Shown here: positions 14,116-48,616 of the stretch, in pieces
Numbering within the stretch: the first letter of the stretch is position 1
Layout: every line of letters begins with the position of its first letter
Assembly: GCF_902764455.1 (NCBI RefSeq)
Contig: NZ_CACWVY010000011.1
Coordinates: 1-64,000 of the forward strand
Direction of reading: 5' to 3'
Source: an uncultured Methanobrevibacter sp.
GTDB lineage: Archaea; Methanobacteriota; Methanobacteria; Methanobacteriales; Methanobacteriaceae
DNA: 64,000 bases
Translations under genes and position numbers: made by a program
Notes under the pieces: generated by a model
Told to the model about the DNA's origin: nothing
The model's database searches: none
What the model saw: only the letters and a program-made list of their open reading frames with translations

Positions 14116-14832
14116 TCATAGGTTAAGATGAAATTCTTTGCTTTCTATGACTTTCGGGAGTTTTCCAATAGTTGCAACACTCCCGTCACAAATAATTAAT
14201 GCACCCTCAAAATAGGACCTGAACTCATCGGCGCACTCAAGAGCATTCATAACCTTATCCTCACTGGTATCGCCGTTGACACTGTTTGCAATTTTAGTTG
14301 AAAGCCCGTCGCAAACTGCAGGAGAATTTCCAATGACAGTAACGCTGTCAGACTCTCCAAAACTTATTGAATGACCGATTTTTCCAGAGGAAGTGCAGAT
14401 TCCAAGGGGTTTTTTACGTTTTTTGATTTCAAAGGCAATATTGTTTCCCAGAACATCATTGTTGGAATAAATTCCGCACAATACCTTCCGATCATTTATC
14501 ATTGCAATGTCGCCGCCGTTTTCTACAATTGAATAGAAAGATCCCAGCCGGATGAGATAATCCAGTGACATCTCAGAAATTGTTCCGGCCACACATGCCA
14601 TAGGTCCCACATCACAAATATCAGATGCTCCAATCATCTTTACTACAATGTCTGCCAAATTATCCTGGGGAATTTTAAGGGGACTCATGGAAATGAGAAA
14701 ATCATTGTTTCTTAAAATATAGTCTTTCAAATCCCTTCGGATATTGAATATAAATCTTTTCAGGTCATGATTTTCCAAATCTGTGGTAAGGCGGATATGA
14801 GTTTCATCCAAATCAATCTTTGTGAAATTCAT
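14116..14832 (-). CDS. UPF0280 family protein (ApbE-like fold)
   Basis: A 238-residue archaeal protein related to the ApbE flavin-transferase fold; its reaction is not established. Recognisable segments are MGPMACVAG-type (DVGPMACVAGTISE near 97-110), ENGGDIAM near 125 and GICTSSGKIGHSISFG near 143-158. The start at 14832 has no ribosome-binding site, which suggests a leaderless transcript. It is divergent from cpgS with only 44 bases between the start codons, so the two promoters must overlap. Confidence 0.8.
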   Translation of the reverse strand: MNFTKIDLDETHIRLTTDLENHDLKRFIFNIRRDLKDYILRNNDFLISMSPLKIPQDNLADIVVKMIGASDICDVGPMACVAGTISEMSLDYLIRLGSFYSIVENGGDIAMINDRKVLCGIYSNNDVLGNNIAFEIKKRKKPLGICTSSGKIGHSISFGESDSVTVIGNSPAVCDGLSTKIANSVNGDTSEDKVMNALECADEFRSYFEGALIICDGSVATIGKLPKVIESKEFHLNL

Positions 14833-14876
14833 ATTTAATAATTAAACTTTTTATTTATTAAAACAATAGTATTATC

Positions 14877-16256
14877 ATGAAAGCCTTAAACAAAATGCTT
14901 TGTTTAGTTGATGGTGAACACTACCTGCCAGTCACACAAGAAGCAATAGATACCTTAAACAATTTAGAACACATTGATATTATAGGTGCTGTTTTTATCG
15001 GAGGAACCGAAAAGCTAAGAGACGATTCCGAAGAATCTTACTCTGAAAAATTAGGAGTTCCGGTTCAGTTTGCAAAAGACAAGGACATTCCCTATGACAT
15101 TATTGTTGAAATGATTAAAAAATACGATGCTGATACAGTATTTGATTTAAGTGACGAACCTATATTGGATTATCCGAAAAGATTCAAGATTGCATGCAAG
15201 GTTTTAAATGAAGGAATTACCTATGAAGGACCTGATTTTAAATTCGAACCTACAAGCCAATATGAAATCATGGAAAAACCTTCAATAACAATTTTAGGAA
15301 CCGGAAAACGTATCGGAAAAACTGCAGTTTCAGGATTCGTATCAAGACTGATTGATAAAAACGGCTATGAACCATGCGTTATTGCGATGGGAAGAGGCGG
15401 ACCTGAAGAGCCTGAAATCGTGCATGGTGAAAAATTAAAAATCAATGCAGAGTTCCTGCTTGAACAGTCAGAAAAGGGTGTGCATGCAGCAAGTGACCAT
15501 TGGGAAGATGCACTGATGAGCAGAATTTTAACAATAGGATGCAGACGCTGCGGCGGAGGAATGGCCGGTGAAGTATTTATGACAAATATGAAAAAAGGAG
15601 CAAAACTAGCTAATGAAGTAGACTCCAAATTTGCCATATTTGAAGGAAGCGGAGCTGCAATACCTCCAATTAAAACAAATAAGAAAATAGTGCTTGTGGG
15701 AGCAAACCAGCCTATTGAAAACCTGACAACTTACTTCGGACCATACAGGATTGGACTTGGCGATCTGATTATCCTTACAATGTGTGAAGAGCCGATGTGT
15801 TCAGATGAAAAGATAGCTCAGATTGAAGAGTTTGTAAGTGAAGTCAATCCCGATGCAACAGTCATATCCACAGTGTTCAGGCCTAAGCCGCTTGACAATA
15901 TTGAAGGTAAAAAGGTACTCTTTGCAACAACCGCACCTGAGGCAGTTAAAGACAAGCTTGTGGAATATCTGGAAAGCAACTATAACTGTAAAGTTATAGG
16001 AACAACAGCTCACCTCTCCAACAGACCGCTTTTACGCCAGGACATGGAAAAATACATGGACAAGGCCGACGTCATGTTAACCGAGCTGAAAGCAGCCGCA
16101 GTTGATGTTGCAACCAAGGATGCGATAGCACACGGACTGGATGTTGTCTACTGTGACAATATTCCTGTAGCCATAAACGATAACTATCCCAAACTGGACA
16201 AGTCAGTTTTAAAAATAGTTGATAGTGCAATTGATGATTTTAACAAATCATCATAA
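14877..16256 (+). CDS. cpgS: Cyclic 2,3-diphosphoglycerate synthetase
   Basis: CpgS closes 2,3-diphosphoglycerate to the cyclic anhydride using ATP. The product is a large phosphate and potassium counter-ion pool in Methanobacteriales. The 459-residue protein starts [18 protein letters not shown], as family members do. It carries a P-loop-like [15 protein letters not shown] near 139-153 and a GRGGPEEPE segment near 172. No ribosome-binding site precedes ATG 14877, so it is probably leaderless. It is monocistronic and ends in a hairpin region shared with the convergent regulator gene. Confidence 0.88.
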
Positions 16257-16311
16257 CTATCATTTATAGGACTATGAAAAAATAAACAGCCAAAAATTTA
16301 AATTATTTCTG

Positions 16312-16336
16312 CAATTGATGATTAAATCATCAGTTG
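16312..16336. terminator. Hairpin between convergent cpgS and regulator genes
   Basis: CAATTGATGATT and AATCATCAGTTG form a 12-bp stem (one G-T pair) around a single A; in practice the loop will open wider. A similar sequence (caattgatgatttt...aaatcatcat) occurs at the very end of cpgS near 16228-16254, so the element appears duplicated. No strong T-run follows. Confidence 0.4.
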
Positions 16337-16394
16337 ACCTTTTGATTAAAAAATACGAATAATAATATTCAATATTGACATCATTAGAATAGAT

Positions 16395-16658
16395 TTAAAT
16401 ATATTTTAAAATTTCAAGACCCAAATCGGTGTTTTTATATAATCTACCTTTACGAGCATCCTCATTTAAACAAATAACAATATCTCGCTCTTTTAAATCT
16501 TTCAATACATTAGATACATGGTTTGTTCTCAAACCAATATCTTCAGCAATTGCAGATGGGATTTTAATATTCTCACCAATACTTTTAATAATATTGCACC
16601 TATACTGTGAAGCCATCACATAACCTACAATATCAAAAATCTCATCATTTTTACTCAT
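16395..16658 (-). CDS. Winged-helix transcriptional regulator
   Basis: An 87-residue ArsR/MarR-like DNA-binding protein: an N-terminal helix, then a helix-turn-helix (IPSAIAEDIGLRTNHVSNVL), then a basic wing (ARKGRLYKNTDLGLEIL). It has no ligand domain and no cysteines. ATG 16658 was chosen over an upstream TTG at 16676 because neither has a ribosome-binding site and MSKNDEIFDIV is the usual type of N-terminus. Its target is unknown. The nearest promoters are its own and that of mtxX. Confidence 0.75.
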   Translation of the reverse strand: MSKNDEIFDIVGYVMASQYRCNIIKSIGENIKIPSAIAEDIGLRTNHVSNVLKDLKERDIVICLNEDARKGRLYKNTDLGLEILKYI

Positions 16659-16788
16659 AATAGTTAATAACTTCAATCTATTATAAAAAATAAGTATATA
16701 ATTTATGCAATTTTATACACATTTTATGAATTTAAAATATTTTGTTAAAGCAAAAATTAATAAAAAACCAACATAAATATTATACATA

Positions 16789-17502
16789 ATGACAACAATA
16801 GCAATAGGAATAGGTAGAAATTTAAATATTTTAAAAGCTATCGAAATTTTTAAAAAAGACCATGAAATCGAAGTGAAACCGGTTCACAGTGATGATGAAT
16901 TGGCAAATTCAATACTCGATAAAAATATTGATGCCGTTGTTCGGGGTTCACTTGCCGCATCAGGCGTTATCAAAAAAGTCAAGAATGAATTTCCGGAAAT
17001 CTCAAGAGCAACATATGTAAACGGAGACGGACATGAATTTTTACTGACTCCAGTCGGAATCGATGAGGGAAATACAATTGAAGAAAAATTGAAAATAGCC
17101 AGAAACTGTGGAGAATTTTTAAAAAAACTTGGAAAAGAACCTAAAATTGCCGTTCTTGCAGATGGAAGAAAAGGAGACTACGGCAGAAGCGAAAAGATCT
17201 CACAGTCAATTGACGAGAGTGAAAAATTAACCGAGCTAATAAAAAATAATACTGATTTTGAAGTTAAAAACTATTATATTCTAATTGAACAGGCAATAGA
17301 AGACAAATGCAATGTCATAATTGCTCCTGACGGAATTATAGGAAATATAATATTCAGGACACTGGTTCTGGTTAATTCCTGGCCGAGCTATGGTGCAGTA
17401 ACATTTGGAATCGATGGAATATACATTGACACAAGCCGTGACCAAAGTGTCGAAGGATATCTCAGAAGCTTGATTTTTGCAAATAATTTAGCCAAACTTT
17501 AA
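16789..17502 (+). CDS. mtxX: Methanogenesis marker protein 4 / MtxX
   Basis: A 237-residue protein matching the methanogen-specific Mmp4/MtxX family, which has a phosphotransacetylase-like fold. Its role in methanogenesis is not established, and older annotations call it a methyltransferase-related protein. Recognisable segments are IAIGIGRN at the start, [16 protein letters not shown] near 47-62, [17 protein letters not shown] near 83-99 and [15 protein letters not shown] near 205-219. It precedes uppS by 52 bases and may be co-transcribed with uppS and tatD. Confidence 0.78.
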
Positions 17503-17554
17503 AAACTTTAAGCAATATAATATTAATTATTATAAAAATTTAAGGAATAAAAAA

Positions 17555-18319
17555 ATGGCAGAAAATATACTTTATAGACTATATGAATGGTATATTTCCA
17601 GAGGTCTGGTTCCGGAAAAAATGCCAAAGCATGTAGCTATAATTATGGATGGAAACAGAAGATATTCAAAACTCCAGGGAAATATAGATGTTCTTAAAGG
17701 CCATGAAATGGGAGTTGACACTTTAGAAAATGTTCTTGACTGGAGTGTTGAACTTGGAATAGAAATTGTTACTGCCTACGCATTTTCAACAGAAAACTTC
17801 AACAGACCAGAACATGAAGTTGAAGGATTAATGAAGTTATTCGTAATTAACTTCAAAAGACTAGTGAACCATGAAAAAATACACAAAAACGAAGTAAGAG
17901 TAAACGTTGTAGGCAGAACAGAATTACTGCCTGAAAGCGTACGTGAAGCAATTAGAGAAGCCGAAGAGGCAACAAAACATTACACCAAAAGAATATTCAA
18001 CTTAGCGATTGGTTATGACGGACGTTTGGAAATAGTCGATTCAATTAAAAAAATCATTGAAGATGTGGAAGCAGGAAAAGTTTCAATTGATGACGTTGAT
18101 GAAGACCTTGTAAGTAAAAACCTCTATACCGCAGGCCTTGCAGATCCTAACCTGATTATCAGAACAAGCGGTGAAGAGCGTTTGAGCGGATTTCTATTAT
18201 GGCAATCCTCATATTCAGAGCTTTATTTCTGTGAAACATTATGGCCCGAACTAAGGAAAGTTGATTTTATAAGAGCTATAAGATCCTATCAGGCAAGAGA
18301 CAGAAGATTTGGAGTATAA
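17555..18319 (+). CDS. uppS: cis-Prenyltransferase (polyprenyl diphosphate synthase, UppS family)
   Basis: It makes the long-chain polyprenyl diphosphate that becomes the lipid carrier for glycans, probably including pseudomurein precursors. Family motifs are all present: [14 protein letters not shown] near 25-40 with the catalytic Asp, [11 protein letters not shown] near 86-96, and [15 protein letters not shown] near 207-221. The length of 254 residues is normal. AAGGA precedes the ATG. Its stop is 3 bases before tatD. Confidence 0.93.
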
Positions 18320-18322
18320 ACA

Positions 18323-19084
18323 ATGATTGATACCCATTGCCACATTGATTTTGAAGATTTTGACAAAGACCGTAAGGAAGTAATAAAAAGAGCGCAGGAC
18401 AAACTTGACTATGTTGTTGCATCAGGATACAGCATTGACAGTAACCGTGACGTGTTAAACCTTTCCCAGGAATATAAAGGTTTTATATATCCTACTTTTG
18501 GTTTTCACCCTGTAAGCTCTCAGAACTGCAGCAATGAAGAGCTTGAAAATGCACACAAATATCTTATTGAAAATTTGGACAATATTGTTGCAATCGGCGA
18601 AGTTGGAATGGACTATTATTACGTAACAGACAAGGAGTTGCGGGAAAGACAGCAGGAAATCTTTAGAAGCTTTCTCGACATTGCAAACAAATATGAATTC
18701 CCGATTGTAATGCATGTAAGAGACTGTGAGAAAAAAGCGGTTAACATCATCGAAGACTATGATAATATTCCTTATTTTATTTTCCATTGCTATGGAGGCA
18801 GTTTAAAGACCGCCAAAAGAATCATGAACAGAAACGATTCATATATGAGCTTTTCTACAATGCTGTGCTATTCAAAACATCATCAGGATTTGATTGAAAA
18901 AATAGATCTTGACTATGTTTTAACTGAAACTGACAGTCCATATCTGGCCATGACAAAAGAAGAGCGAAACGAACCTGTTAATGTTGTCAATGCAGTTCAT
19001 AAAATTGCAGAAATCAAAGGCATTGACGTTAATGTTGTTGATGAGATAACCACCAACAACGCAAGAAAAATTTTTAAAATTTAA
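18323..19084 (+). CDS. tatD: TatD family metal-dependent hydrolase
   Basis: TatD enzymes are TIM-barrel metallohydrolases, in bacteria shown to act as DNases and D-aminoacyl-tRNA deacylases. Metal ligands are visible: DTHCHIDFEDFD at 3-14, GEVGMDYYY near 92, PIVMHVRDC near 129, HCYGG near 157, and TETDSPYLA near 208. Its 253 residues are full length. A GGAG site inside the uppS end suggests translational coupling. Its end overlaps the convergent gene at 19081 by 4 bases. Confidence 0.88.
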   Translation: MIDTHCHIDFEDFDKDRKEVIKRAQDKLDYVVASGYSIDSNRDVLNLSQEYKGFIYPTFGFHPVSSQNCSNEELENAHKYLIENLDNIVAIGEVGMDYYYVTDKELRERQQEIFRSFLDIANKYEFPIVMHVRDCEKKAVNIIEDYDNIPYFIFHCYGGSLKTAKRIMNRNDSYMSFSTMLCYSKHHQDLIEKIDLDYVLTETDSPYLAMTKEERNEPVNVVNAVHKIAEIKGIDVNVVDEITTNNARKIFKI

Positions 19085-19449
19085 AAGTGAAGTGTGAAAT
19101 TAAGATTAATTAACACATCATTATTTTCTTTTACCGCTTCGATTTCCAGTTCAAAATCTGTCATGTCTTTTTTTACTAAATTTATTAAATGCCAGTCCAA
19201 AAGAGAATCATTGAGATAAACTATAAACTGATTTCTATCAATTTTTACGGATTTTCTACAGAAGAGCTTAAAAGCATAGAGATATAACTCCAGCCTGAAT
19301 ATCAAATCCTGCCTGTCGCCCTTTCCGTTGATGAAAAATTCCTTCAAATCTTCCTGCAGGATTTTGCCTTCATCACCAGTATCAGCCTGAAATGTTTCCA
19401 TTTCTTTTAAATCATTCATCAACTGCTTTTTTTCCTCATCACTATACAT
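19081..19449 (-). CDS. Hypothetical protein
   Basis: A 122-residue soluble, acidic protein that I do not recognise. It starts with a helical region rich in Lys and Glu (DEEKKQLMNDLKEMETF) and ends in alternating hydrophobic strands (DVLINLNFTLHF). It is adjacent to the similar-sized gene at 19450, with no gap between stop and start. The C-terminal strand patterns are alike (LNFTLHF versus LKFVLKGV), so the two may be distant paralogues that act together. Confidence 0.6.
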   Translation of the reverse strand: MYSDEEKKQLMNDLKEMETFQADTGDEGKILQEDLKEFFINGKGDRQDLIFRLELYLYAFKLFCRKSVKIDRNQFIVYLNDSLLDWHLINLVKKDMTDFELEIEAVKENNDVLINLNFTLHF

Positions 19450-19746
19450 CTAAACACCTTTCAATACGAATTTTAATTTAATAAGACCATAATCGTTTGG
19501 CATAAATGAAATTTCAAATCTGTCAAAACTATCGTCCAGCTTTCTTAAGACGGAGAATTCCAAATCATCAGGAATTAAATGGAGAATGAATGAATCTTCA
19601 CTGATTTCAACATCCAAATCCTCCAGAAGAGGAATTTTCAACTCGGAAATGAACATATATTTATATACTATTAACTCGTAGTCGTTAACCTCTTTACCTG
19701 TTGAAATTATTTCAGCCAGCTCTTCCTGAAGTTTAAAGGAAACCAC
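19450..19746 (-). CDS. Hypothetical protein
   Basis: A 98-residue protein of unknown function, co-directional and abutting the 122-residue gene. It has an N-terminal helix (FKLQEELAEIISTGKEV), then beta-rich sequence (DVEISEDSFILHLIPDDLEF). There are no cysteines or membrane segments. The gene organisation (gap of 22 bases to the upstream carboxymuconolactone decarboxylase family gene) suggests one transcript. Confidence 0.6.
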   Translation of the reverse strand: MVSFKLQEELAEIISTGKEVNDYELIVYKYMFISELKIPLLEDLDVEISEDSFILHLIPDDLEFSVLRKLDDSFDRFEISFMPNDYGLIKLKFVLKGV

Positions 19747-19768
19747 GTCAAAAGTTTCTTTGCTAATC

Positions 19769-20152
19769 CTAATCCCTCACAGGCATCAGTCCACGTTCAG
19801 TGAATACCTCTTTAGCTGCCACAACCCCATTGATAGCTTTTGGAAAACCGCAGTAGGCACACATCTGCATGATAATCTCAACGATTTCAGTTGGGCTGTT
19901 GCCTACATTCAATGCTGCATTAATGTGGTCTTTAAGCTGAGGAACTGTTCCAAGAACAGTCAATGCAGCCACAGTGCATATTTCTCGAGTTTTTAAATCC
20001 ACTTCGTCCCTGGTGTAAATTTCAGAATATGGAAATTCAATTACAAATCTGGACAGATCAGGAGCAATGTCTTCAAGCTCACCAAATATCTCTTCAACTG
20101 ATCTTTGCTGAATATCTTCAATTACTTTTTTACCTTTTTCATATCTTGACAT
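19769..20152 (-). CDS. Carboxymuconolactone decarboxylase family protein
   Basis: A 128-residue AhpD/CMD-fold protein. The core LKTREICTVAALTVLGTVPQ near 66-85 and EIIMQMCAYCGFPKAINGV near 106-124 includes the CXXC pair (CAYC) that gives disulfide reductase activity in AhpD-like members. I chose ATG 20152 because MSRYEKGKKVIEDI is the usual start. The upstream possibility at 20203 would overlap the previous gene by 35 bases. The substrate is unknown; a redox or stress role is likely. Confidence 0.8.
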   Translation of the reverse strand: MSRYEKGKKVIEDIQQRSVEEIFGELEDIAPDLSRFVIEFPYSEIYTRDEVDLKTREICTVAALTVLGTVPQLKDHINAALNVGNSPTEIVEIIMQMCAYCGFPKAINGVVAAKEVFTERGLMPVRD

Positions 20153-38379: not shown

Positions 38380-39663
38380 TTATGAAAGTTTTTCAGAAAT
38401 CAGTTTAATTCTTTCTTGAATATCAATAATAGTATCTTGACCGTTTCCACCAATGAGTATTGCATCTTCATGAGAATATTCCGCCACCAGCTCAATAATC
38501 TCATCAAGTGAATTAACAGTGATAATATTTCCCATGTATCCTAAAGAATTAATCCTGTAAATTGCGATATCCAAAGTATCATCCAAACCAGGAAAGAGCA
38601 CAATTACTTCCGGATTATATTTTACCGCAACATCCAGAATGTCAAGCCTGTGGATTTCGTTGTGTCTTGGAGTTCCAATGAATATAGCATAAAAATCTTT
38701 TTCAGCTAAAATAGATGCGAGTGCATCTGAATTATCTGTTTTTCCAACATAAACCTGAGCATCATTAATTTTATAAACATCCAATCTGCCTTCAACGGCA
38801 TTGAAATCGGCCAAAGTTGATTTGATAACCTCCTTGGATACTTTAAGCTCACGAGTAATGGCAGATGCAAGACCTGCATTAAGCAGGTTAAACTTACCGA
38901 ACAATTTTAATTCATCCTGATACTCAAAATAGGGAATTGTCTTACTTGCAGATTCCTTAAAATCTGAGTTGAAATCCTGATTGAAAGCAGTGAATATTAA
39001 TGTATCTGAGAAAAATCTTACAAGTGAATTTTTATAGTTGGCAATTGTTTTGTGAACGTCCATATGGTCATTTCCGATATTTGTAAGACCGATCATGTCA
39101 AAATCAAAAGAATACTTGCAGAAGTCCAGTGTCATATCACAAACTTCAACAAGCAGTATATCATATTCACCTTCACTGGCTTCAAGAATCAAATCATAAT
39201 AACCTGAAAATCCTCCACCACCATTTCCGCCGACTAAAACTTTTTTACCGGCATTTTCCAAAATGCTTTTTATCATATGAACAGTGGTTGTTTTACCGTT
39301 TGTTCCTGTTATTCCAATTGTAAAAATATCCTTGTGCTTAGTTACAACATCACTTAAAAGTTCTCCATTTTCAAGCAATTTAGTTGCAAAGCTTCCCCCA
39401 TACATACTGGGACTTATAGCAACGGCATCACATTGTTCAATGGCATAAGGATTTGTAAAACCTAAATCCAAAGTAATATTTTCGCCAACTATTGAAACAG
39501 TCTGTTCATCATCCATTAAATCCATTGATAATAAAGGCAAATTTAAGCCCTCTAAATCAACATTAACATTTAAATCAGTTGCATAAACTTCCCAACCATG
39601 CTTTAAAAGGGAATTAACTGCTTTTTTTCCTTCTACTCCCAAACCTATTACTGCCGCTTTCAT
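38380..39663 (-). CDS. Mur ligase family protein (probable pseudomurein-type peptide ligase)
   Basis: A 427-residue ATP-dependent ligase: an N-terminal Rossmann-like domain (KAAVIGLGVEGKKAV), an ATP loop GITGTNGKTTTVHM near 117-130, LTNIGNDHMDVH near 189-200, and a C-terminal ligase domain (FNAVEGRLDVY). Mur-type ligases in Methanobacteriales build the peptide of pseudomurein. ATG 39663 (MKAAVIG) was chosen over the frame start at 39678, which adds only five residues and would break the usual start. It stands alone rather than in a wall gene cluster; the exact amino acid added is unknown. Confidence 0.82.
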   Translation of the reverse strand: MKAAVIGLGVEGKKAVNSLLKHGWEVYATDLNVNVDLEGLNLPLLSMDLMDDEQTVSIVGENITLDLGFTNPYAIEQCDAVAISPSMYGGSFATKLLENGELLSDVVTKHKDIFTIGITGTNGKTTTVHMIKSILENAGKKVLVGGNGGGGFSGYYDLILEASEGEYDILLVEVCDMTLDFCKYSFDFDMIGLTNIGNDHMDVHKTIANYKNSLVRFFSDTLIFTAFNQDFNSDFKESASKTIPYFEYQDELKLFGKFNLLNAGLASAITRELKVSKEVIKSTLADFNAVEGRLDVYKINDAQVYVGKTDNSDALASILAEKDFYAIFIGTPRHNEIHRLDILDVAVKYNPEVIVLFPGLDDTLDIAIYRINSLGYMGNIITVNSLDEIIELVAEYSHEDAILIGGNGQDTIIDIQERIKLISEKLS

Positions 39664-39781: not shown

Positions 39782-40174
39782 ATGTTTGAAGATGAAAAAG
39801 ATGATAAGATTTATAATTTAATTATATCACATGGTACAGATTTAAAAAATGAATATGGACAGTTCACACAAAAATTATATGAAAAAGTGGATTTTTTATG
39901 GAAGGAATCTATTTCAGGTTCATATGAACATGCAAGCGAAGAGTTTTATTCAAAAGTAGACAGAATCATATTGCTTGCAGGCCTTTACAATGACAATAAG
40001 GAATTATTTGAAACATTATTAAATGCAGGTGAAAAATACAACATACCAATAGTTTTGGTAAGACCTTTAGGACTTGAAGAAGTTCCAGAAATATTAGAAG
40101 AAAAGGCTGCAACCATCGTCGGATGGAATGCAAACTGCATAATCGATTCTGTTAAAGATGCGGATTTAATGTAA
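39782..40174 (+). CDS. TIR-like protein (MTH538 / ThsB_TIR-type fold)
   Basis: A 130-residue single-domain protein. IYNLIISHGTDL near 11-22 is the first TIR strand and S-H motif; RIILLAGLYNDNKELFE near 61-77, IPIVLVRPLG near 88-97 and ATIVGWNANCIIDSV near 110-124 follow the order seen in MTH538-type TIR proteins. The helix that normally holds the NADase Glu has no clear W-X-X-E-X equivalent, so catalysis is uncertain. It ends 24 bases from the convergent rad50 stop. I recall MTH538 lying near the rad50/mre11 genes of Methanothermobacter, so the linkage may be conserved. No ThsA-type partner is present. Confidence 0.65.
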   Translation: MFEDEKDDKIYNLIISHGTDLKNEYGQFTQKLYEKVDFLWKESISGSYEHASEEFYSKVDRIILLAGLYNDNKELFETLLNAGEKYNIPIVLVRPLGLEEVPEILEEKAATIVGWNANCIIDSVKDADLM

Positions 40175-40198
40175 AAAAAATAATTAAAAAAATGATAT

Positions 40199-42946
40199 TT
40201 AAAATGAAACTTTTGAAATACCATTTTCTTTTTCAACTTTAATTAAATTGTCGGCAGCATTTTCCAGCTGACTTTCATGAGTTACAATTATCATTTGCGG
40301 TAAAACAGACATGTCCTTTAACAGATTGATAAGTTCATGTTTTCTTGAACTGTCCAAATGAATTGTAGGCTCATCCAATAAAATTGTATCCAGTTCTCCT
40401 TTAGACATTGCACGAGTAATACCAAGTCTTAAAGCCAGTGCAATAGCTATTTTTTCACCACCACTAACCATACTCATTGAAGATTCACCTTCAGGACCGT
40501 AAACAGTAACATCATACTCATCGTCCAATGTTAAATCGGAGTAATTAAAGTTGAATTCATTGAAGAATTCTTTTGTGTATTTTTGGATTAAAGGTTTTGA
40601 AATGCTTCTTAAATCCTTTTGAATACCATTTTTACTATACAGATTCCTGATATGACTTAACAAGTTAATATAATCTGAAATGTCATTATACTCTTGCTGG
40701 AACTTATCTGTGGTTTGTATTCTTTCTCTTAAATCTTTAAGATAATTAATTGATTCACGAGCTCTTCCTTTAAGTTCTGAAAGTTGAGTATTGAAGGCAT
40801 TTTGCTGTCTTTCATACATTTCAAAGCGATATACGATATGTTCATATCTTTCCTTGTCATAAATAGATGCTTCAATCTTGTTTTTGATAACTTCAATCTC
40901 ATTTATGCTGACACCAATATTCTCTTTTATAGTATCAAGCTGTGTCATCAAAGATTTCTTATTTTGAACAAAACCTTTAAGCTGGTTATATTCTTCATTT
41001 TTCTGTTTTAAATCTTCGATACGGTCTTGAAGCTCACTGGCACTGATGTCACCAGTCAAATGAGGGTCTTGCTCAATAGCACGCTTGATATTTTTAACAT
41101 GAGTGTCAATTTCATTTCTGACCTGTTTTAATTTAAATTGAGCATCAGTTTCACTGCCTAAAACTTCAAGTGCACCTTTAGCTTTATTATATGCATCATA
41201 AGAAGCTTTATAAGATTCACGATCAGATTTGATATTGGCTATAACTAAAATCAATTCACCTAGTTTATTGCTGATAAATTCTTTGGATTCAAGTCCTTCA
41301 TCAAGTTTATTTAATTTTGAAACTTCACCTTCAAGATGATTGACTTTTTGTTTGTATTCAATAATCTCTTTGGATAAATCATTGATAACAACAAGTTTTT
41401 CTTCAAGGCTTTTCTTATTTTTAGAAAGTAATTTTACATCTTCCTCATTTTGAGCAATTAACTTCTCATTATCTGCTATTTCAATTTCATAATTCTGAAT
41501 CAATTGTGATTTCTTTTTGTAATCAATTTCTGATTGACAGACAGGACATCTATTTTCAACATCAGCCAATTCCTTCAAAGGTTTTTGGGATGCTTTAATA
41601 TTCTGTTTGAATATTACAATGTCCTCGTTTTTGGAAATGATGTCATTAGACAAACTTTCGATTTTTTGTTTGATTTCATCTATAAACTTATTGGTTGCTT
41701 CTTCAAGATGGTTAAAGTCATCAATTGCATCGAGATCTTCTTGAGACATTCCGTTATCATCAAGTTTATCTTTTGCTTTTGAGAAGAAATCTCTGATATT
41801 GTTTCTTTCATCTTCAATGGATTTCAATAAATCTTTTTTATCTTGTTCAAGTTTGGCCATGGTAGCCAATTCTTTTTCATATTTAACTTTACGATTATCC
41901 AATTTGGATATTTCTTCATCGGATGCTAAAAATTTATTATAATCACTTTTTTTATCAGCAACGATTACTTTTTGATTGGCAATTGATTCCAATTTTTCAG
42001 TTATCTGTTTTTCTTCTTTTTTCAAGTTTTGAATTCCTACAACTGATTTTTCGAAATCAAGATAAACGTCTAATTTGGAAACATATTTTTCAAGTCTGGA
42101 AATTCTTTCCTCATCCTCTCTGATTTTATCAAGTTCTTCCTGAATAGAACGTTTACTTTCTTCAAGTTTGGAAAAATTGGCTTCTTCAATTTCCAGATTA
42201 GTTAACTGTTTATCATGGATTTGTTTTTCTCTTTCCATATCCCTTTTACTTTCAGAGATTTCCTGCAGTGAGGAGGTAACATCATTCAATTGGCTTTCAA
42301 GTTCATGACCCTTATCTTTCAAATCATCCAATTCATTTTTCTTTGTATCATATTCATCTTTCAGTTCTTTTGAATTGTATAGTTTACCCTTAAGTTCTGA
42401 AAGCCGATTTTCATAATCATTAATGAACGGCAATAAATTTTTCCATGACTTTTCAAGTGAATCAATACCTAATAGCTTTGCAATCAATAACTTTTTCTCA
42501 GCAGGTGTCTTATCCACCAAATCAGCAATTTCACCTTGCCTTATGTAAATGGCATTCAGGAACAAATCGGAATCAATATCCAAAATCTGGCGAATTTCAT
42601 CATTCACTTCCCTGTCACCTGTACAAATGTGGACAAAACCTCCTTCATTAGAAGTTTTTGTGTAAATGGAAGATTTCAGATTGGATTTCTTTTCACGGAC
42701 AATTTTATAATCTTTACCATTTGATGTGAATTCCAATTCAACAGCCATGTTATCGGCATTATTTCTAACTAAATCATCAATTTTTTTAGCAGTATGCTGT
42801 TTGAATAAAGCAAAACTAATAGCTTCCAGGATAGTTGATTTACCTGCACCGTTTTCACCAACTATAACACTTATTCCTTTATCGAATCCTATTATTGTGC
42901 TTTGATGTGATTTAAAATTAGTTAATTTTAATTTTTTGAAAATCAT
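40199..42946 (-). CDS. rad50: DNA double-strand break repair ATPase Rad50
   Basis: With Mre11 it tethers and processes broken DNA ends. The 915-residue protein has Walker A GENGAGKSTILEAISF near 32-47, long coiled-coil arms, the zinc hook CPVCQSE near 467-473, the signature SMVSGGEKIAIALALRLG, and Walker B LDTILLDEPTIHLDSS near the end. It overlaps mre11 by 4 bases (ATGA), so the two are translated in fixed ratio. Confidence 0.96.
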   Translation of the reverse strand: MIFKKLKLTNFKSHQSTIIGFDKGISVIVGENGAGKSTILEAISFALFKQHTAKKIDDLVRNNADNMAVELEFTSNGKDYKIVREKKSNLKSSIYTKTSNEGGFVHICTGDREVNDEIRQILDIDSDLFLNAIYIRQGEIADLVDKTPAEKKLLIAKLLGIDSLEKSWKNLLPFINDYENRLSELKGKLYNSKELKDEYDTKKNELDDLKDKGHELESQLNDVTSSLQEISESKRDMEREKQIHDKQLTNLEIEEANFSKLEESKRSIQEELDKIREDEERISRLEKYVSKLDVYLDFEKSVVGIQNLKKEEKQITEKLESIANQKVIVADKKSDYNKFLASDEEISKLDNRKVKYEKELATMAKLEQDKKDLLKSIEDERNNIRDFFSKAKDKLDDNGMSQEDLDAIDDFNHLEEATNKFIDEIKQKIESLSNDIISKNEDIVIFKQNIKASQKPLKELADVENRCPVCQSEIDYKKKSQLIQNYEIEIADNEKLIAQNEEDVKLLSKNKKSLEEKLVVINDLSKEIIEYKQKVNHLEGEVSKLNKLDEGLESKEFISNKLGELILVIANIKSDRESYKASYDAYNKAKGALEVLGSETDAQFKLKQVRNEIDTHVKNIKRAIEQDPHLTGDISASELQDRIEDLKQKNEEYNQLKGFVQNKKSLMTQLDTIKENIGVSINEIEVIKNKIEASIYDKERYEHIVYRFEMYERQQNAFNTQLSELKGRARESINYLKDLRERIQTTDKFQQEYNDISDYINLLSHIRNLYSKNGIQKDLRSISKPLIQKYTKEFFNEFNFNYSDLTLDDEYDVTVYGPEGESSMSMVSGGEKIAIALALRLGITRAMSKGELDTILLDEPTIHLDSSRKHELINLLKDMSVLPQMIIVTHESQLENAADNLIKVEKENGISKVSF

Positions 42947-44202
42947 TGCTGAACCTCCTTCTTAAATGTTACTTGAACATCTTTAGGTTGTTCTTCTGGA
43001 GTTTCTTCTTCAACCTCTTCAATTTCTTCTTTTTCTATTTTAAATTCAACATCATCTTTTACAGTATTGTAATGCTCTTGGAAAAATTGGTCAATAATAT
43101 CCTGTGAATCTTCAATGCGGTCCTTTGATAAATAGTCATACAGGTCAATAGCCAATTTATTGACATCACTATTGCCGTAGCCCTTTAGCTTTTCAACAAT
43201 TAATTCTTTAGGACCTACACGATTGTTTTCGTTGATAATTATATCAATAGATTCTTCTCCGACCATGTTAAAATTAGGTCGGATAATTAAAGACAATTCT
43301 CCCAATTCATCGTTAATCATTTCATAAACAAAGCTTGTATCAGATTCGACATTATTGATTTCCAAATTCAGTATTGGAGGTTTGTCAAAATCCTTAATGG
43401 TTTCTCTTATTCCTGCTATTCCGCTTCCCAGATTATTGTAGTCAAGAGACCTTTTGACAAAGGTACGTGAAATATCCACATTAACCCTTTTGACAACAGG
43501 TTTTGGACCATCCATATCAACAACGACAAAACCTTTTCCGTTTCTAGCATAATCTTCAAGCTCATCGGTTTTCCAAATTTCACTTGAACCCGGATAAACC
43601 AGTTTGCCTTTTCCAAAATCGTCACAGATATATTTATGGATATGGCCCATTGCATAATATGAGAAATTGTCAGGAATATCTCCAATTTCCAGCTCATACT
43701 GGTAACCGAAGTACTTGTCAATTCCCTGATGCAGCACCAAAATAGATTTATCATAGTCAGCTGCTTTTTTGGACAGTTCCGCTAATTTGGATTTTAAAAC
43801 TCTGGATTGTGAAGCAGGATAATATGGCAGTCCTGCAATAAATATGTCATCCTGCATGTAATTTGTATTGATTGGACTGATTACTTTCAATCCTAATTTC
43901 TTAAAAATCACCTGAGGAGGAATTGATCCTCTGCGGGCAACTGAATCATGATTTCCTGCTATTGCATAGACTGGAATTCCTGCACCCTTAAGTTTCAATA
44001 ATCCTTTTTGGAATTCTAAAAGTGCCATTGGAGATGGTTTTGCGGTTTCGAATAAGTCTCCACTATGTATTACAAAGTCTACATTTTCTTCAATAATTTT
44101 ATCTATAACTTTTCCAAACACTTCATAAAAGTCTTTTTCACGCTCAATTAAACCAAATTGGCGATAACCTAAATGAGTGTCTGCTAAATGTGCAAATTTC
44201 AT
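42943..44202 (-). CDS. mre11: DNA double-strand break repair nuclease Mre11
   Basis: A Mn-dependent nuclease of the Mre11-Rad50 complex. Phosphoesterase motifs are all present: ADTHLGYRQFG at 7-17, HSGDLFETAKPS near 47, AGNHDSVARRG near 82, LVLHQGIDKYFG near 157 and AMGHIHKY near 186. The C-terminal tail is very acidic (EIEEVEEETPEEQP). The family length is normal (419). An AGGT site precedes the ATG. Confidence 0.95.
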   Translation of the reverse strand: MKFAHLADTHLGYRQFGLIEREKDFYEVFGKVIDKIIEENVDFVIHSGDLFETAKPSPMALLEFQKGLLKLKGAGIPVYAIAGNHDSVARRGSIPPQVIFKKLGLKVISPINTNYMQDDIFIAGLPYYPASQSRVLKSKLAELSKKAADYDKSILVLHQGIDKYFGYQYELEIGDIPDNFSYYAMGHIHKYICDDFGKGKLVYPGSSEIWKTDELEDYARNGKGFVVVDMDGPKPVVKRVNVDISRTFVKRSLDYNNLGSGIAGIRETIKDFDKPPILNLEINNVESDTSFVYEMINDELGELSLIIRPNFNMVGEESIDIIINENNRVGPKELIVEKLKGYGNSDVNKLAIDLYDYLSKDRIEDSQDIIDQFFQEHYNTVKDDVEFKIEKEEIEEVEEETPEEQPKDVQVTFKKEVQQ

Positions 44203-44383: not shown

Positions 44384-45877
44384 TTAAGAAAGTTTCAGGA
44401 AATACATATCCTGATGCTTATAGACTTTCTTACCTGTTATATTATTTTCAAATTTGAAATTTTTATCCGGAAACGTATCAATCATATACACTTTTTTACC
44501 ATGATTTTCCTTCATGATAGTTGTCAGATTACTACCTGATTTGACGTCATCCAGCTTATAATCAAATCTGATGTCTTTCTGAGTAGCATACAGTTTAGCA
44601 TTGTCAACATAATCATGATAACAGACATATAAAAAGTCCTGATTAAATACTACAACATTGCTGTCATTGTTTAATTTATCCAATGCCGCAATCATCTCAC
44701 TTCCATCGTCTTTTATCTGATTATTTGTATCATAAGTAACAGCCAATCCGTAAGCACCCAATAGAAGTACTAAAATAATAGAAATCACTAAAATCTTCCG
44801 GTCTTTAATCTTTCCAATGACAATTGCACAGGACAGCCATAACAGTGAGATTACAGGTATCAGGTATCTGATTACTAACGGTTTATATGTTAAAACGATT
44901 GCAGTTACTCCTATAGCTAAAGTCAGTAAATATAATATAAAACCTGAAGAGATAAAATAATTTTCATTGAAATCTGTGCTTTTTGACTGTTTTACAAAAA
45001 TTATTATCATGAATACTAAAAAGAGTATTGCAAGGATTCTAAAACCGAAATCAACATAAGAAAAATCAGTAGTACTGTTTACTGCAAACCATGAAACATA
45101 ACTGAACAGATCATATAAATGTGGAAAATTCTTTTGATATTCCATGGTTTTACTTACCTGTTTCATTAAAACAAATATCCACGGGGCATATAAAATCACA
45201 GTGGAAATACTGGCCACTATCCATTTTTTCAGTTCCTCTTTTTTATCAATGCCATCATTATTGATGAAAATACGGATAAATAACATTAGATACATCAATG
45301 CAGAGCTAACCAATACGAAATAATGTGTATAAGCTCCGAGCAGTGTAAACAATATAAACAGTGCCCATGATTTTCTATCAGATTTTGCGATGACTTGCCT
45401 GAAATATAAAAAAGACATAAGAAGGAACAGTAAACTCCAGCTGTACATCCTAATTGTGGAATATCCTCTAAAGAAGAATGACATGGCTATAATTGAAAAT
45501 GTAAATATACCAACAGTCAGCCAGCCGTATTCTTTTCTTATTTTAGTTGCACTAATGCCCAAAACAATAAAATATGGAACAAATGAAATTATCTTTAAAA
45601 CAGATATCAAATCATATTGAATATGAAGAGCATTTAGAACATAACAGACCGTTTGAACTATCATGTAGTACAAAGGAGGATGAACATCCTTAATTGTTAT
45701 TTTCAAACATTCCAAAAAGGATGTTTTTATCAAAGCGACTGTCCACCATTCATCAATATGTATTAAAACATTGCTGATTGGTGAAAAAAACAAATAAATT
45801 CCAAGTAAAACACTAACGGCAAAAAATATTTTTCCGATATTGCTCTTTAAATCATCTTCTGAAAAATTTTTATTCAT
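44384..45877 (-). CDS. GT-C membrane glycosyltransferase (GT39/ArnT-like)
   Basis: A 497-residue protein with about eleven transmembrane helices. The first outer loop holds IDEWWT near 40-45 and DVHPPLYY near 63-70, matching the catalytic Asp/Glu and polyprenyl-sugar region of GT-C enzymes such as ArnT and PMT. The C-terminal tail is a soluble outer domain. GGTG five bases before ATG 45877 decides this start over a GTG two codons upstream. It probably transfers sugar from a lipid carrier to a surface protein or wall polymer. It sits between mre11-rad50 and herA-nurA without obvious functional link. Confidence 0.8.
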   Translation of the reverse strand: MNKNFSEDDLKSNIGKIFFAVSVLLGIYLFFSPISNVLIHIDEWWTVALIKTSFLECLKITIKDVHPPLYYMIVQTVCYVLNALHIQYDLISVLKIISFVPYFIVLGISATKIRKEYGWLTVGIFTFSIIAMSFFFRGYSTIRMYSWSLLFLLMSFLYFRQVIAKSDRKSWALFILFTLLGAYTHYFVLVSSALMYLMLFIRIFINNDGIDKKEELKKWIVASISTVILYAPWIFVLMKQVSKTMEYQKNFPHLYDLFSYVSWFAVNSTTDFSYVDFGFRILAILFLVFMIIIFVKQSKSTDFNENYFISSGFILYLLTLAIGVTAIVLTYKPLVIRYLIPVISLLWLSCAIVIGKIKDRKILVISIILVLLLGAYGLAVTYDTNNQIKDDGSEMIAALDKLNNDSNVVVFNQDFLYVCYHDYVDNAKLYATQKDIRFDYKLDDVKSGSNLTTIMKENHGKKVYMIDTFPDKNFKFENNITGKKVYKHQDMYFLKLS

Positions 45878-46031
45878 ATACACACCACAAAAATAAGAAT
45901 AAATTAAAATTATTCTAAAAAAATTTAATAAATCTATACTATTAGTTATTGATTAAATTAATTAATAAAAGTTATTATACAAATAATTAAAAAAAGAATT
46001 GAACAATAATATAATATTGTTCGTTCAAAAT

Positions 46032-47546
46032 CTAATAATCATAACCCATGTCCAAAGTCTCTTGTTCAGCTTCACGCAGTTCCTTTTCTTTTCTTTCCTT
46101 GATATCCTTAAAATAAGATACAATGTCCATGTCATCACCATGGCGACGACCTTTAAACTCATCGATTTTAACAAGAGTAGGAACTTTGCTCATTAAACCT
46201 AAAACTATTGCCTCTCCAACGTTCAAGGACGGAAGCTGGTTAACCAAATCTTGTGAGAGACTTTCACTTGCTGACTGGACATGCCTTTGGTCTTCAGGCT
46301 CAACAAGCCTTAGGATTATCATGTTATTCATTTGAGACAGAGCATCATGATCAACTGTTTTAGGAGATTGGCTTACAAGACATAATCCTAAACCAAATTT
46401 ACGCCCTTCCCTTGCAACTCTCTGTATCCATCTTTTAGAATCTGAATCACGCTTATTTGGAGCCAATATATGAGCTTCTTCTAAGATGAAAAATACAGAA
46501 TTGTTTAGCAGATCGGCTTTATTTCCACTATGAGCAGCATCTTTTGACCTTTGAAGTGAATTTCTTAAAATATGGCTGACAAGAACGGTAGCAACATATT
46601 CATCAACCTGACTTAAATCAAGGACATTTAAATATCCTGCCTTAATGTTGGATATGATGTTTGAAGCATTCTGATAAAATAGCTTGGAGTATTTAAGTTT
46701 CGAATCAGTAATCTTGTTCATCACGTCAACCATAGTCTTTTCAACCTTTGCATCCTCATCATTAATCCCTGATTTATCTTCAAGGTAATTATACATCAAA
46801 TCCAGGAAGTTTACTGTTTCATGAGTTCCTTCACTGAGTTTTTTAGTAGCATAATTGAATGCTTCTCTAAAGTATCTCTCCTGAATAACCGCATTATTCG
46901 GAATATTCATCAGACTCTTGATTTCATAAAATTCCATATATTTAGGATTGATTTGAGGTTTAATTACATTTACTTGCCCATTCGGGAACTGTGCATCCTT
47001 ATACTCACCGTGCATATCAAAAACAAAAACAGGAACATTATATGTTAACAGCTGGTCCATCAAAACAGACACAGTATTTGATTTACCTGCACCAGTCATT
47101 GCCAGAATAGCCAAATGTCTTGACAGAATCGGATTGGCATCAACATTAACATCCACATCACTCTGATTTACAAGACAACCTAACTTCAAAGCATTTTTAA
47201 CATCGAATATTTCCCTTAATACATCCTTATCGGCCAGTCTGATTTCAGTTCCGGGAAGCACTGGAGTTCTAGGCAGTTTTAAATTATCATTGACATCACC
47301 AAGAATTTTGACTTTACCCCTGATATAATTTTCATCAACGCCGATTCTTGAGATTTTTTGGATTGCTTTGAAATCGTTTATATCCACATTTAAAGCATCA
47401 TTTCCTCTTATCAGATTTTCAATCATGCCCAAAACCATTTTTCCGTCATATTCTATAGTAACATATTCTCCCACTTTAGGCATTTTATCTGAAATAAATG
47501 TAACTTCAGTCAGTGAAGTTTCACCGACACAAATTCCGACTACCAT
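46032..47546 (-). CDS. herA: DNA end-resection helicase/translocase HerA
   Basis: A hexameric bidirectional DNA translocase that works with NurA in end resection. The 504-residue protein has an N-terminal HAS barrel, Walker A MTGAGKSNTVSVLMDQL near 150-166, Walker B FFILEEAHILAPNKRD near 350-365 and the arginine finger region VAREGRKFGLGL near 376. It overlaps the nurA stop by 7 bases and follows it in the transcript. Confidence 0.94.
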   Translation of the reverse strand: MVVGICVGETSLTEVTFISDKMPKVGEYVTIEYDGKMVLGMIENLIRGNDALNVDINDFKAIQKISRIGVDENYIRGKVKILGDVNDNLKLPRTPVLPGTEIRLADKDVLREIFDVKNALKLGCLVNQSDVDVNVDANPILSRHLAILAMTGAGKSNTVSVLMDQLLTYNVPVFVFDMHGEYKDAQFPNGQVNVIKPQINPKYMEFYEIKSLMNIPNNAVIQERYFREAFNYATKKLSEGTHETVNFLDLMYNYLEDKSGINDEDAKVEKTMVDVMNKITDSKLKYSKLFYQNASNIISNIKAGYLNVLDLSQVDEYVATVLVSHILRNSLQRSKDAAHSGNKADLLNNSVFFILEEAHILAPNKRDSDSKRWIQRVAREGRKFGLGLCLVSQSPKTVDHDALSQMNNMIILRLVEPEDQRHVQSASESLSQDLVNQLPSLNVGEAIVLGLMSKVPTLVKIDEFKGRRHGDDMDIVSYFKDIKERKEKELREAEQETLDMGYDY

Positions 47547-48616
47547 GACATCACTTCCCTATTAGTTGTTTCGTAAATCTTAGCTATTTTTAATAATTCC
47601 TTAATATTTCTGTCTGTAATCACAACATCATTGTGCGCTTTATTCAATAGATACGGATAACCCTGAACTGACAGGACGTTGATTTTCTCGATTATCCTGA
47701 ACACTTCCTGTTTAGAAGCTTTATACGGCAATTCAACCTTCAGCACGTTTTTATTGTCCTGCAGCCTTACATAAAAAATCGTAAATGTCAATGCCTTGAA
47801 AAAATCATTGTAATACGGGAAAGCCGCTTTTTCATATACTTTAAAATCATCTTTAATTAATGAAATACCCTGTTTTTTGGTATTTTTATCCAAAAATGCA
47901 ATATCCGGAATATTCCAATGGAACAATGAATTATCAGAAGAGGTTTTTGAAATAGAAATAATCTTTTTTCTGTGTTGCAGAATTTCCTTTAAAAGAATAA
48001 TCTTTTCTATTGATGCTAAATGAAGATTATACTCTTCAATCTTATTTGAATTTTCACTTCTCGGCAATTCCATTAATTTCAGAGAATCTCTAATTTCCGG
48101 AAATGACAAGCCGTAACGATTAATCTTTAATCTTCTCTCAAATTCGTTTTTAAGTGAATCATCCAGATTTTCCCTTAATTTATTTGGCAGCTTGGCGCCT
48201 CTTGGAAATGCATTTTGAAGGTCTCCCAAAATGGATCCGTCAAACATATAGTAATCAACATCATATTCATTTAAAGCCCTTAGAGCGCATTTCAACTCAT
48301 ATATTGCCATGTAATTTCCTAAAAGTTCATCCAAAAAAGAAACATGGCCAATGTCAAAAATATCCGAGTCGTCAATTTTTTTGATTTCACCATCGTAAAT
48401 TATAGATTCAGCACCGACAGCACAGAAATTGGTTGTTAGAAATTTCTTTTTGTTGAAACTTCCGTCTCCTGCTGCAATAATGAATTCATCGGAACTTTCT
48501 TTGATATTTCTATCAAACCACCTTCCGTTCAATAAATCTTCAGGATTGGTTTCTGATTCAATATCATGGATAAATCCTCTTTTAGCGATGGCTTTTTCAT
48601 ATAGTGAATTTAACAT
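47540..48616 (-). CDS. nurA: DNA end-resection nuclease NurA
   Basis: A 358-residue nuclease that resects the 5' strand within the HerA channel. Metal ligands of the family are visible in AAGDGSFNKKKF near 48-59 and YYMFDGSILGDLQ near 121-133, with TDRN near the end. A TAGGAGAT site precedes the ATG. It forms a two-gene operon with herA; mre11-rad50 lies downstream on the same strand, separated by a glycosyltransferase gene. Confidence 0.92.
   Translation of the reverse strand: MLNSLYEKAIAKRGFIHDIESETNPEDLLNGRWFDRNIKESSDEFIIAAGDGSFNKKKFLTTNFCAVGAESIIYDGEIKKIDDSDIFDIGHVSFLDELLGNYMAIYELKCALRALNEYDVDYYMFDGSILGDLQNAFPRGAKLPNKLRENLDDSLKNEFERRLKINRYGLSFPEIRDSLKLMELPRSENSNKIEEYNLHLASIEKIILLKEILQHRKKIISISKTSSDNSLFHWNIPDIAFLDKNTKKQGISLIKDDFKVYEKAAFPYYNDFFKALTFTIFYVRLQDNKNVLKVELPYKASKQEVFRIIEKINVLSVQGYPYLLNKAHNDVVITDRNIKELLKIAKIYETTNREVMSW

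What the first reader, a model, noticed from the sequence alone, without database searches (positions are those of the whole stretch)
39782..42946. TIR-like gene next to rad50-mre11
A single-domain TIR-like protein (MTH538/ThsB_TIR type) is convergent with rad50, 24 bases from its stop. I recall MTH538 being near rad50 in Methanothermobacter, so linkage may be old. TIR domains make NAD-derived signals in defence systems. A TIR sensor tied to DNA-end processing would be new, yet the catalytic Glu is not obvious.
Basis: partly seen in the sequence, partly recalled or inferred. Interest (0 to 1): 0.6.

Follow-up and report, generated by a model that had tools for sequence, protein, structure and literature searches.

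The report
Dead TIR-like gene beside rad50
A small archaeal protein beside DNA-repair genes is built like an immune-signalling TIR domain but has lost that domain's catalytic site throughout its family, and although its position near rad50 is old, it looks inherited and changeable rather than a sign of a DNA-break alarm.

Summary
A 130-aa gene (39782-40174, +) is convergent with rad50 (40199-42946, -), 24 bases apart, beside nurA-herA-mre11-rad50. It belongs to the MTH538 family (PDB 1EIW), a distant but real relative of ThsB-type TIR domains, and is under strong purifying selection (median dN/dS 0.06). The linkage is old: 82 of 123 genomes have the two genes within 500 bases, and Methanothermobacter-like genomes keep them ~1 kb apart.

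The proposed function fails. The TIR catalytic Glu (9/9 in TIR relatives) is absent in 122/122 family proteins; the S-x-W and FISHSW motifs are gone too. In the early-branching genera the gene follows a korAB (2-oxoacid:ferredoxin oxidoreductase) operon and a transglutaminase-like gene separates it from rad50; direct contact in Methanobrevibacter is derived. In Methanosphaera it is convergent with nucS instead; a paralogue follows a second thiI. A foreign rad50-mre11-herA cassette replaced the native one in one genome without displacing the gene, and some lineages keep rad50 without it.

Best reading: a domesticated, catalytically dead TIR-fold protein, probably a binding/adaptor protein, conserved in Methanobacteriales, with inherited linkage to rad50. 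A non-enzymatic DNA-repair role (rad50, nucS) is not excluded.

The parts
39782..40174 (+). MTH538-family TIR-like gene (130 aa), predicted non-catalytic; ribosome-binding-like GGTGAT just upstream
40175..40198 (.). 24-base spacer between the convergent stop codons of the TIR-like gene and rad50
40199..42946 (-). rad50 (915 aa; AAA_23, zinc hook)
42943..44202 (-). mre11 (419 aa), overlaps rad50 start by 4 bases
46032..47546 (-). herA helicase (504 aa)
47540..48616 (-). nurA nuclease (358 aa)
38380..39663 (-). Mur-ligase-like gene (called murL here), divergent from the TIR-like gene; the other conserved neighbour of the locus

Best explanation
The gene encodes a domesticated pseudo-TIR of the MTH538 family: a single flavodoxin/TIR-like domain that descends from, or shares ancestry with, ThsB-type TIR domains. 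It has lost the NAD-cleaving site (Glu, the S-x-W before it, the FISHSW first-strand motif and much of the BB-loop segment) but kept a different surface, RPxGxExVP...VGWNxxCI with a nearly invariant Cys119. Shown: homology, loss of the catalytic residues, purifying selection, a tree consistent with vertical inheritance within Methanobacteriales, and old but mutable linkage to rad50. Inferred: it works without chemistry, as a small binding or adaptor protein through the retained C-terminal surface, in a housekeeping rather than abortive-infection role. Its place beside rad50 comes from an old gene block (murL | msrA-korA-korB-TIR | transglutaminase-like | rad50-mre11-herA-nurA) whose middle was deleted in the Methanobrevibacter clade.
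For: Homology: 1EIW E 2e-30; PADLOC ThsB 35/35 members; PF08937 21/35; tblastn with the Methanosphaera member returns annotated TIR-domain proteins. Model pLDDT 81.5; best PDB match 1EIW E 8e-8, TM 0.72; B. cereus TIR 8fz9 TM 0.64. Active site: Glu position E in 9/9 relatives and 0/122 in the family (L 88, H 15, I 12, V 4, others 3); Ser 9/9 vs 0; Trp 9/9, not among the common family residues; FISHSW lost. All examined TIR NADases need this Glu (PMC10022894). Invariant E99 and W115; C119 in 121/122, Ser in 9/9 relatives. dN/dS 0.06. Old block: msrA-korA-korB-TIR-TG-rad50 in eight Methanothermobacter-like genomes and in G141; this korB is in 14/151 genomes and not in the Methanobrevibacter clade.
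Against: No function is shown. Two genera place the gene codirectionally 8-170 bases downstream of rad50 (L044, L045, L048), which is what a functional link would give. The model was built from only 35 sequences, and its matches after 1EIW are weak and mixed (GTPases, CheY-like, TIR, nucleotide hydrolases), so the fold search alone does not single out TIR. An unrelated chemistry using E99 or C119 is not excluded. The ancestral block is inferred by parsimony; a later insertion of korAB is less likely but possible.
Confidence: 0.6

Rival explanations
1. A non-enzymatic accessory of DNA repair: it binds a repair protein (Mre11-Rad50, or NucS) or DNA ends and was kept next to such genes for co-regulation.
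For: Within 500 bases of rad50 in 82 of 123 genomes; codirectional just downstream of rad50 in g10 and g13; in 17/17 Methanosphaera-type loci convergent with nucS, at most 39 bases apart.
Against: Convergent, so not cotranscribed in most genomes. A foreign rad50-mre11-herA cassette displaced the native one in G138 and the gene stayed, 85% identical to its congener's. rad50 persists without the gene beside it in g2 and in several g13 assemblies. In the deepest lineages the codirectional partner is korAB.
Confidence: 0.13
2. An accessory of 2-oxoacid:ferredoxin metabolism or sulfur/redox handling, as suggested by the korAB operon in the early-branching lineages and the thiI2-TIR2 pair.
For: korB to TIR-like gene gap 36-114 bases, same strand, in eight Methanothermobacter-like genomes and G141; paralogue TIR2 lies 11-31 bases downstream of a second thiI in G047 and G078; nearly invariant Cys119.
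Against: The gene persists in over 100 genomes lacking this korAB, and most TIR2 loci examined show no thiI beside them.
Confidence: 0.15
3. An active TIR NADase or cyclase that makes an NAD-derived signal in response to DNA ends.
For: TIR/ThsB homology; old linkage to rad50.
Against: Catalytic Glu absent in 122/122, with the neighbouring motifs. No STALD (ThsA-type effector) domain found in the genome, though that search had no positive control.
Confidence: 0.02
4. A nucleoside 2-deoxyribosyltransferase-like or nucleotide-hydrolase-like enzyme rather than a TIR.
For: Weak profile matches to YtoQ (E 0.03; Pfam PF11071 in 4 members, best 0.016); MilB, Rcl and DNPH1 among low-ranking fold matches.
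Against: ThsB/TIR profile matches are stronger by orders of magnitude, and no catalytic Glu is conserved on the equivalent helix.
Confidence: 0.05

Closest known systems
MTH538 (PDB 1EIW), protein of Methanothermobacter thermautotrophicus with an NMR structure and no known function
   Same: Same family by profile (E 2e-30), same fold (TM 0.72), shared C-terminal motif RPYGLExVP..VGWNxxCI
   Different: About 16-19 residues longer, with more in the segment after the second strand; directly convergent with rad50, whereas Methanothermobacter-like genomes have a transglutaminase-like gene in between and korAB upstream
ThsB-type TIR proteins (Pfam PF08937; Thoeris), and the plasmid TIR proteins of L171-L178
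   Same: Homologous domain; PxGxE and V-x-W...[SC]I segments shared
   Different: Catalytic Glu, the S-x-W motif and FISHSW absent; BB-loop segment shortened; usually single-copy and order-wide rather than a mobile defence gene
TcpO-TIR of Methanobrevibacter olleyae (active archaeal TIR NADase, PMC10022894)
   Same: TIR domain, related host
   Different: A different protein whose activity needs Glu279, which has no counterpart here; not compared by sequence here

Membership tests
MTH538 family | Significant sequence similarity to 1EIW over the whole domain | tested here: met
   phmmer 7e-12; family profile 2e-30 over positions 10-128
MTH538 family | Same fold as the solved structure | tested here: met
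   Foldseek E 8e-8, TM 0.72/0.83
PF08937 ThsB_TIR | Score above Pfam's gathering cut-off | tested here: not met
   Window protein has no hit; some relatives pass it (30 and 21.7 bits against 21.2), so it is a divergent relative rather than a formal member
TIR NADase / ThsB | Catalytic Glu in S-x-W-x3-E | tested here: not met
   0/122 in the family, 9/9 in relatives
TIR NADase / ThsB | FISHSW-type first-strand motif and full BB-loop segment | tested here: not met
   Alignment
Thoeris system | ThsA-type effector encoded with the TIR protein | tested here: inconclusive
   No STALD domain in the genome, but the search rang in no control genome; none of the adjacent genes identified here is such an effector
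Part of the Mre11-Rad50-HerA-NurA machinery | Conserved cotranscription or strict co-occurrence with rad50 | tested here: not met
   Mostly convergent; lost or unlinked in Methanosphaera, g2, several g13 assemblies and g14
Part of the Mre11-Rad50-HerA-NurA machinery | Physical interaction or damage phenotype | not testable with these tools
   Needs bench work

The most novel reading that the evidence does not exclude
A catalytically dead TIR domain has been recruited as a non-enzymatic DNA-repair accessory in Methanobacteriales: next to rad50 in most genera, directly downstream of rad50 in two, and next to nucS (the mismatch endonuclease) in Methanosphaera.
Probability: 0.1. Interest if true: 0.6.

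Novelty: new member of a known kind. Interest (0 to 1): 0.32.

Why it matters
MTH538 has had a structure since 2000 and, in the papers I could search, no function. Showing that the whole family lacks the TIR active site turns the question from which signal it makes to what it binds, and warns against annotating these genes as Thoeris or TIR defence. The mapped contexts (korB, rad50, nucS, thiI2) give specific partners to test. The in-place replacement of a rad50 cassette with a leftover native tail shows that neighbourhood alone is weak evidence for partnership here.

Tried and rejected
1. NAD-signalling TIR sensor of DNA ends: rejected on the missing catalytic residues. 2. Chance neighbourhood: rejected; the linkage spans most of the order. 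3. Operon with rad50: not in this genome, since the genes are convergent; found only in g10 and g13. 4. Methanosphaera copy as the thiI-linked paralogue: not supported, since the tree keeps Methanosphaera apart from the TIR2 clade, although long branches meet there. 7. Literature on MTH538 in the open library: four papers with passing mentions by their counts, none opened beyond the search listing. 8. Two region requests and one alignment failed on coordinates; one search ended on a naming error after writing its alignment, which read; searches failed on a thread setting and were replaced.

Full report
OBSERVATION. The ORF at 39782-40174 (+) codes for 130 aa and ends 24 bases before the stop of rad50 (40199-42946, -). 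The neighbours are mre11, herA and nurA on the minus strand. A membrane-protein gene (44384-45883, probably a glycosyltransferase by its sequence; not searched against families) interrupts mre11-herA in this genome. On the other side is a divergent Mur-ligase-like gene, called murL here. The small gene is under strong purifying selection (median dN/dS 0.06 over 110 close pairs).

WHAT THE PROTEIN IS. It matches the NMR structure MTH538/1EIW (E 7e-12 alone, 2e-30 as a family profile). The window protein itself misses Pfam's ThsB_TIR, but 21 of 35 relatives hit it (best 7e-7) and all 35 hit PADLOC's ThsB model (best 1.7e-10). A Methanosphaera member used in tblastn returns annotated TIR-domain proteins from plasmids of haloarchaea, a cyanobacterium and enterobacteria, and one of these in turn matches 1EIW (E 2e-6) and, weakly, the B. 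cereus TIR 8fz9 (E 0.08). The AlphaFold model (pLDDT 81.5) matches 1EIW best (E 8e-8); the next matches are mixed and include 8fz9 at TM 0.64. It is therefore TIR-like by sequence chain more than by fold search.

THE ACTIVE SITE IS GONE. I aligned 122 distinct family proteins with nine plasmid TIR relatives. The catalytic Glu of S-x-W-x3-E is E in 9/9 relatives and in none of the family (Leu 88, His 15, Ile 12, Val 4, others 3). The Ser is 9/9 in relatives and not seen in the family; the Trp is 9/9 and not among the family's common residues; the FISHSW motif is not kept. All examined TIR NADases need this Glu (ThsB E85; PMC10022894). What the family keeps is E99 and W115 (122/122), G114, I120 and C119 (121/122 each); C119 is Ser in 9/9 relatives. 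This supports a non-catalytic role that uses the C-terminal surface; the role itself is inferred.

DISTRIBUTION. 132 of 151 genomes of the order have it, usually as one copy. A degenerate-pattern scan of 84,980 species kept 80 loci, all fitting Methanobacteriales; the patterns require family-specific motifs, so distant relatives would be missed. The tree separates the family from the plasmid TIR proteins with full support and puts the second copies (TIR2) in one clade within the Methanobrevibacter group.

LINKAGE. Over 123 genomes with a positioned hit, the gene lies within 500 bases of rad50 in 82 (79 convergent, 3 directly downstream on the same strand), at 0.5-6 kb in 6, at 6-20 kb in 4, far in 5, on another contig in 18, and with no rad50 found in 8 (positions, and for two genomes). 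The murL neighbour is conserved about as well and is sometimes kept where rad50 has moved away, so what is inherited is a block rather than a pair.

THE OLDER ARRANGEMENT. In eight Methanothermobacter-like genomes and in G141 the order is murL | msrA-korA-korB-TIR | transglutaminase-like | rad50-mre11-herA, with the gene 36-114 bases downstream of korB on the same strand. That korB is absent (E <= 1e-60) from the Methanobrevibacter clade and Methanosphaera (14/151 genomes have it). By parsimony, deletion of msrA-korAB and the transglutaminase-like gene brought the TIR-like gene into contact with rad50.

EVIDENCE THAT THE RAD50 LINK IS NOT A PARTNERSHIP. (1) In G138 a divergent rad50-mre11-herA cassette sits in the native locus and abuts a 106-aa tail of the native rad50, 98% identical over 103 aa to that of a congener; the TIR-like protein is 85% identical to the congener's. 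(2) g2 (G005) has rad50 directly next to murL with no such gene between, and three g13 assemblies (G131, G132, G134) have rad50 with none immediately downstream. (3) Methanosphaera keeps the gene elsewhere, convergent with nucS in 17/17 loci. (4) TIR2 in G047 and G078 follows a second thiI by 11-31 bases. Points 3 and 4 leave room for a repair or metabolic role but do not establish one.

VERDICT. The gene is a new member of a known, uncharacterised family.

Noticed in passing
L070 (G138:C1), 14581-19993: Divergent rad50-mre11-herA cassette in the native locus, abutting a 106-aa 3' remnant of the native rad50 (98% identical over 103 aa to the congener G139): footprint of recent in-place replacement.
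   Followed up: partly
L051, L061, L185-L190: Methanothermobacter-like genomes carry a divergent Rad50-Mre11-HerA type (about 25% identity to the window's) at the same locus, perhaps an older replacement.
   Followed up: partly
L047, L057-L059, L091-L103: In Methanosphaera-type loci the MTH538-family gene is convergent with nucS, at most 39 bases apart or slightly overlapping, in 17 of 17.
   Followed up: yes
L054 8873-10484; L056 9266-10845: A paralogue (TIR2) lies 11-31 bases downstream of a second thiI gene; these genomes also carry another thiI elsewhere.
   Followed up: partly
L051 8670-9535: korB is split into two ORFs (frameshift or sequencing error) in one Methanothermobacter-like genome (G150).
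   Followed up: no
L048 4878-5276: Fast-evolving copy in g13 (end branch 1.13) that has lost Cys119 and the VGWN glycine; other g13 assemblies have rad50 without the gene beside it: possible ongoing loss.
   Followed up: partly
window 44384-45883: A membrane-protein gene (probably a glycosyltransferase) lies between mre11 and herA here; several relatives have these two genes about 90-200 bases apart.
   Followed up: no
L095 and L119: One MAG (CAMNJW01) holds both a Methanosphaera-type and a Methanobrevibacter-type copy: probably a mixed bin.
   Followed up: no
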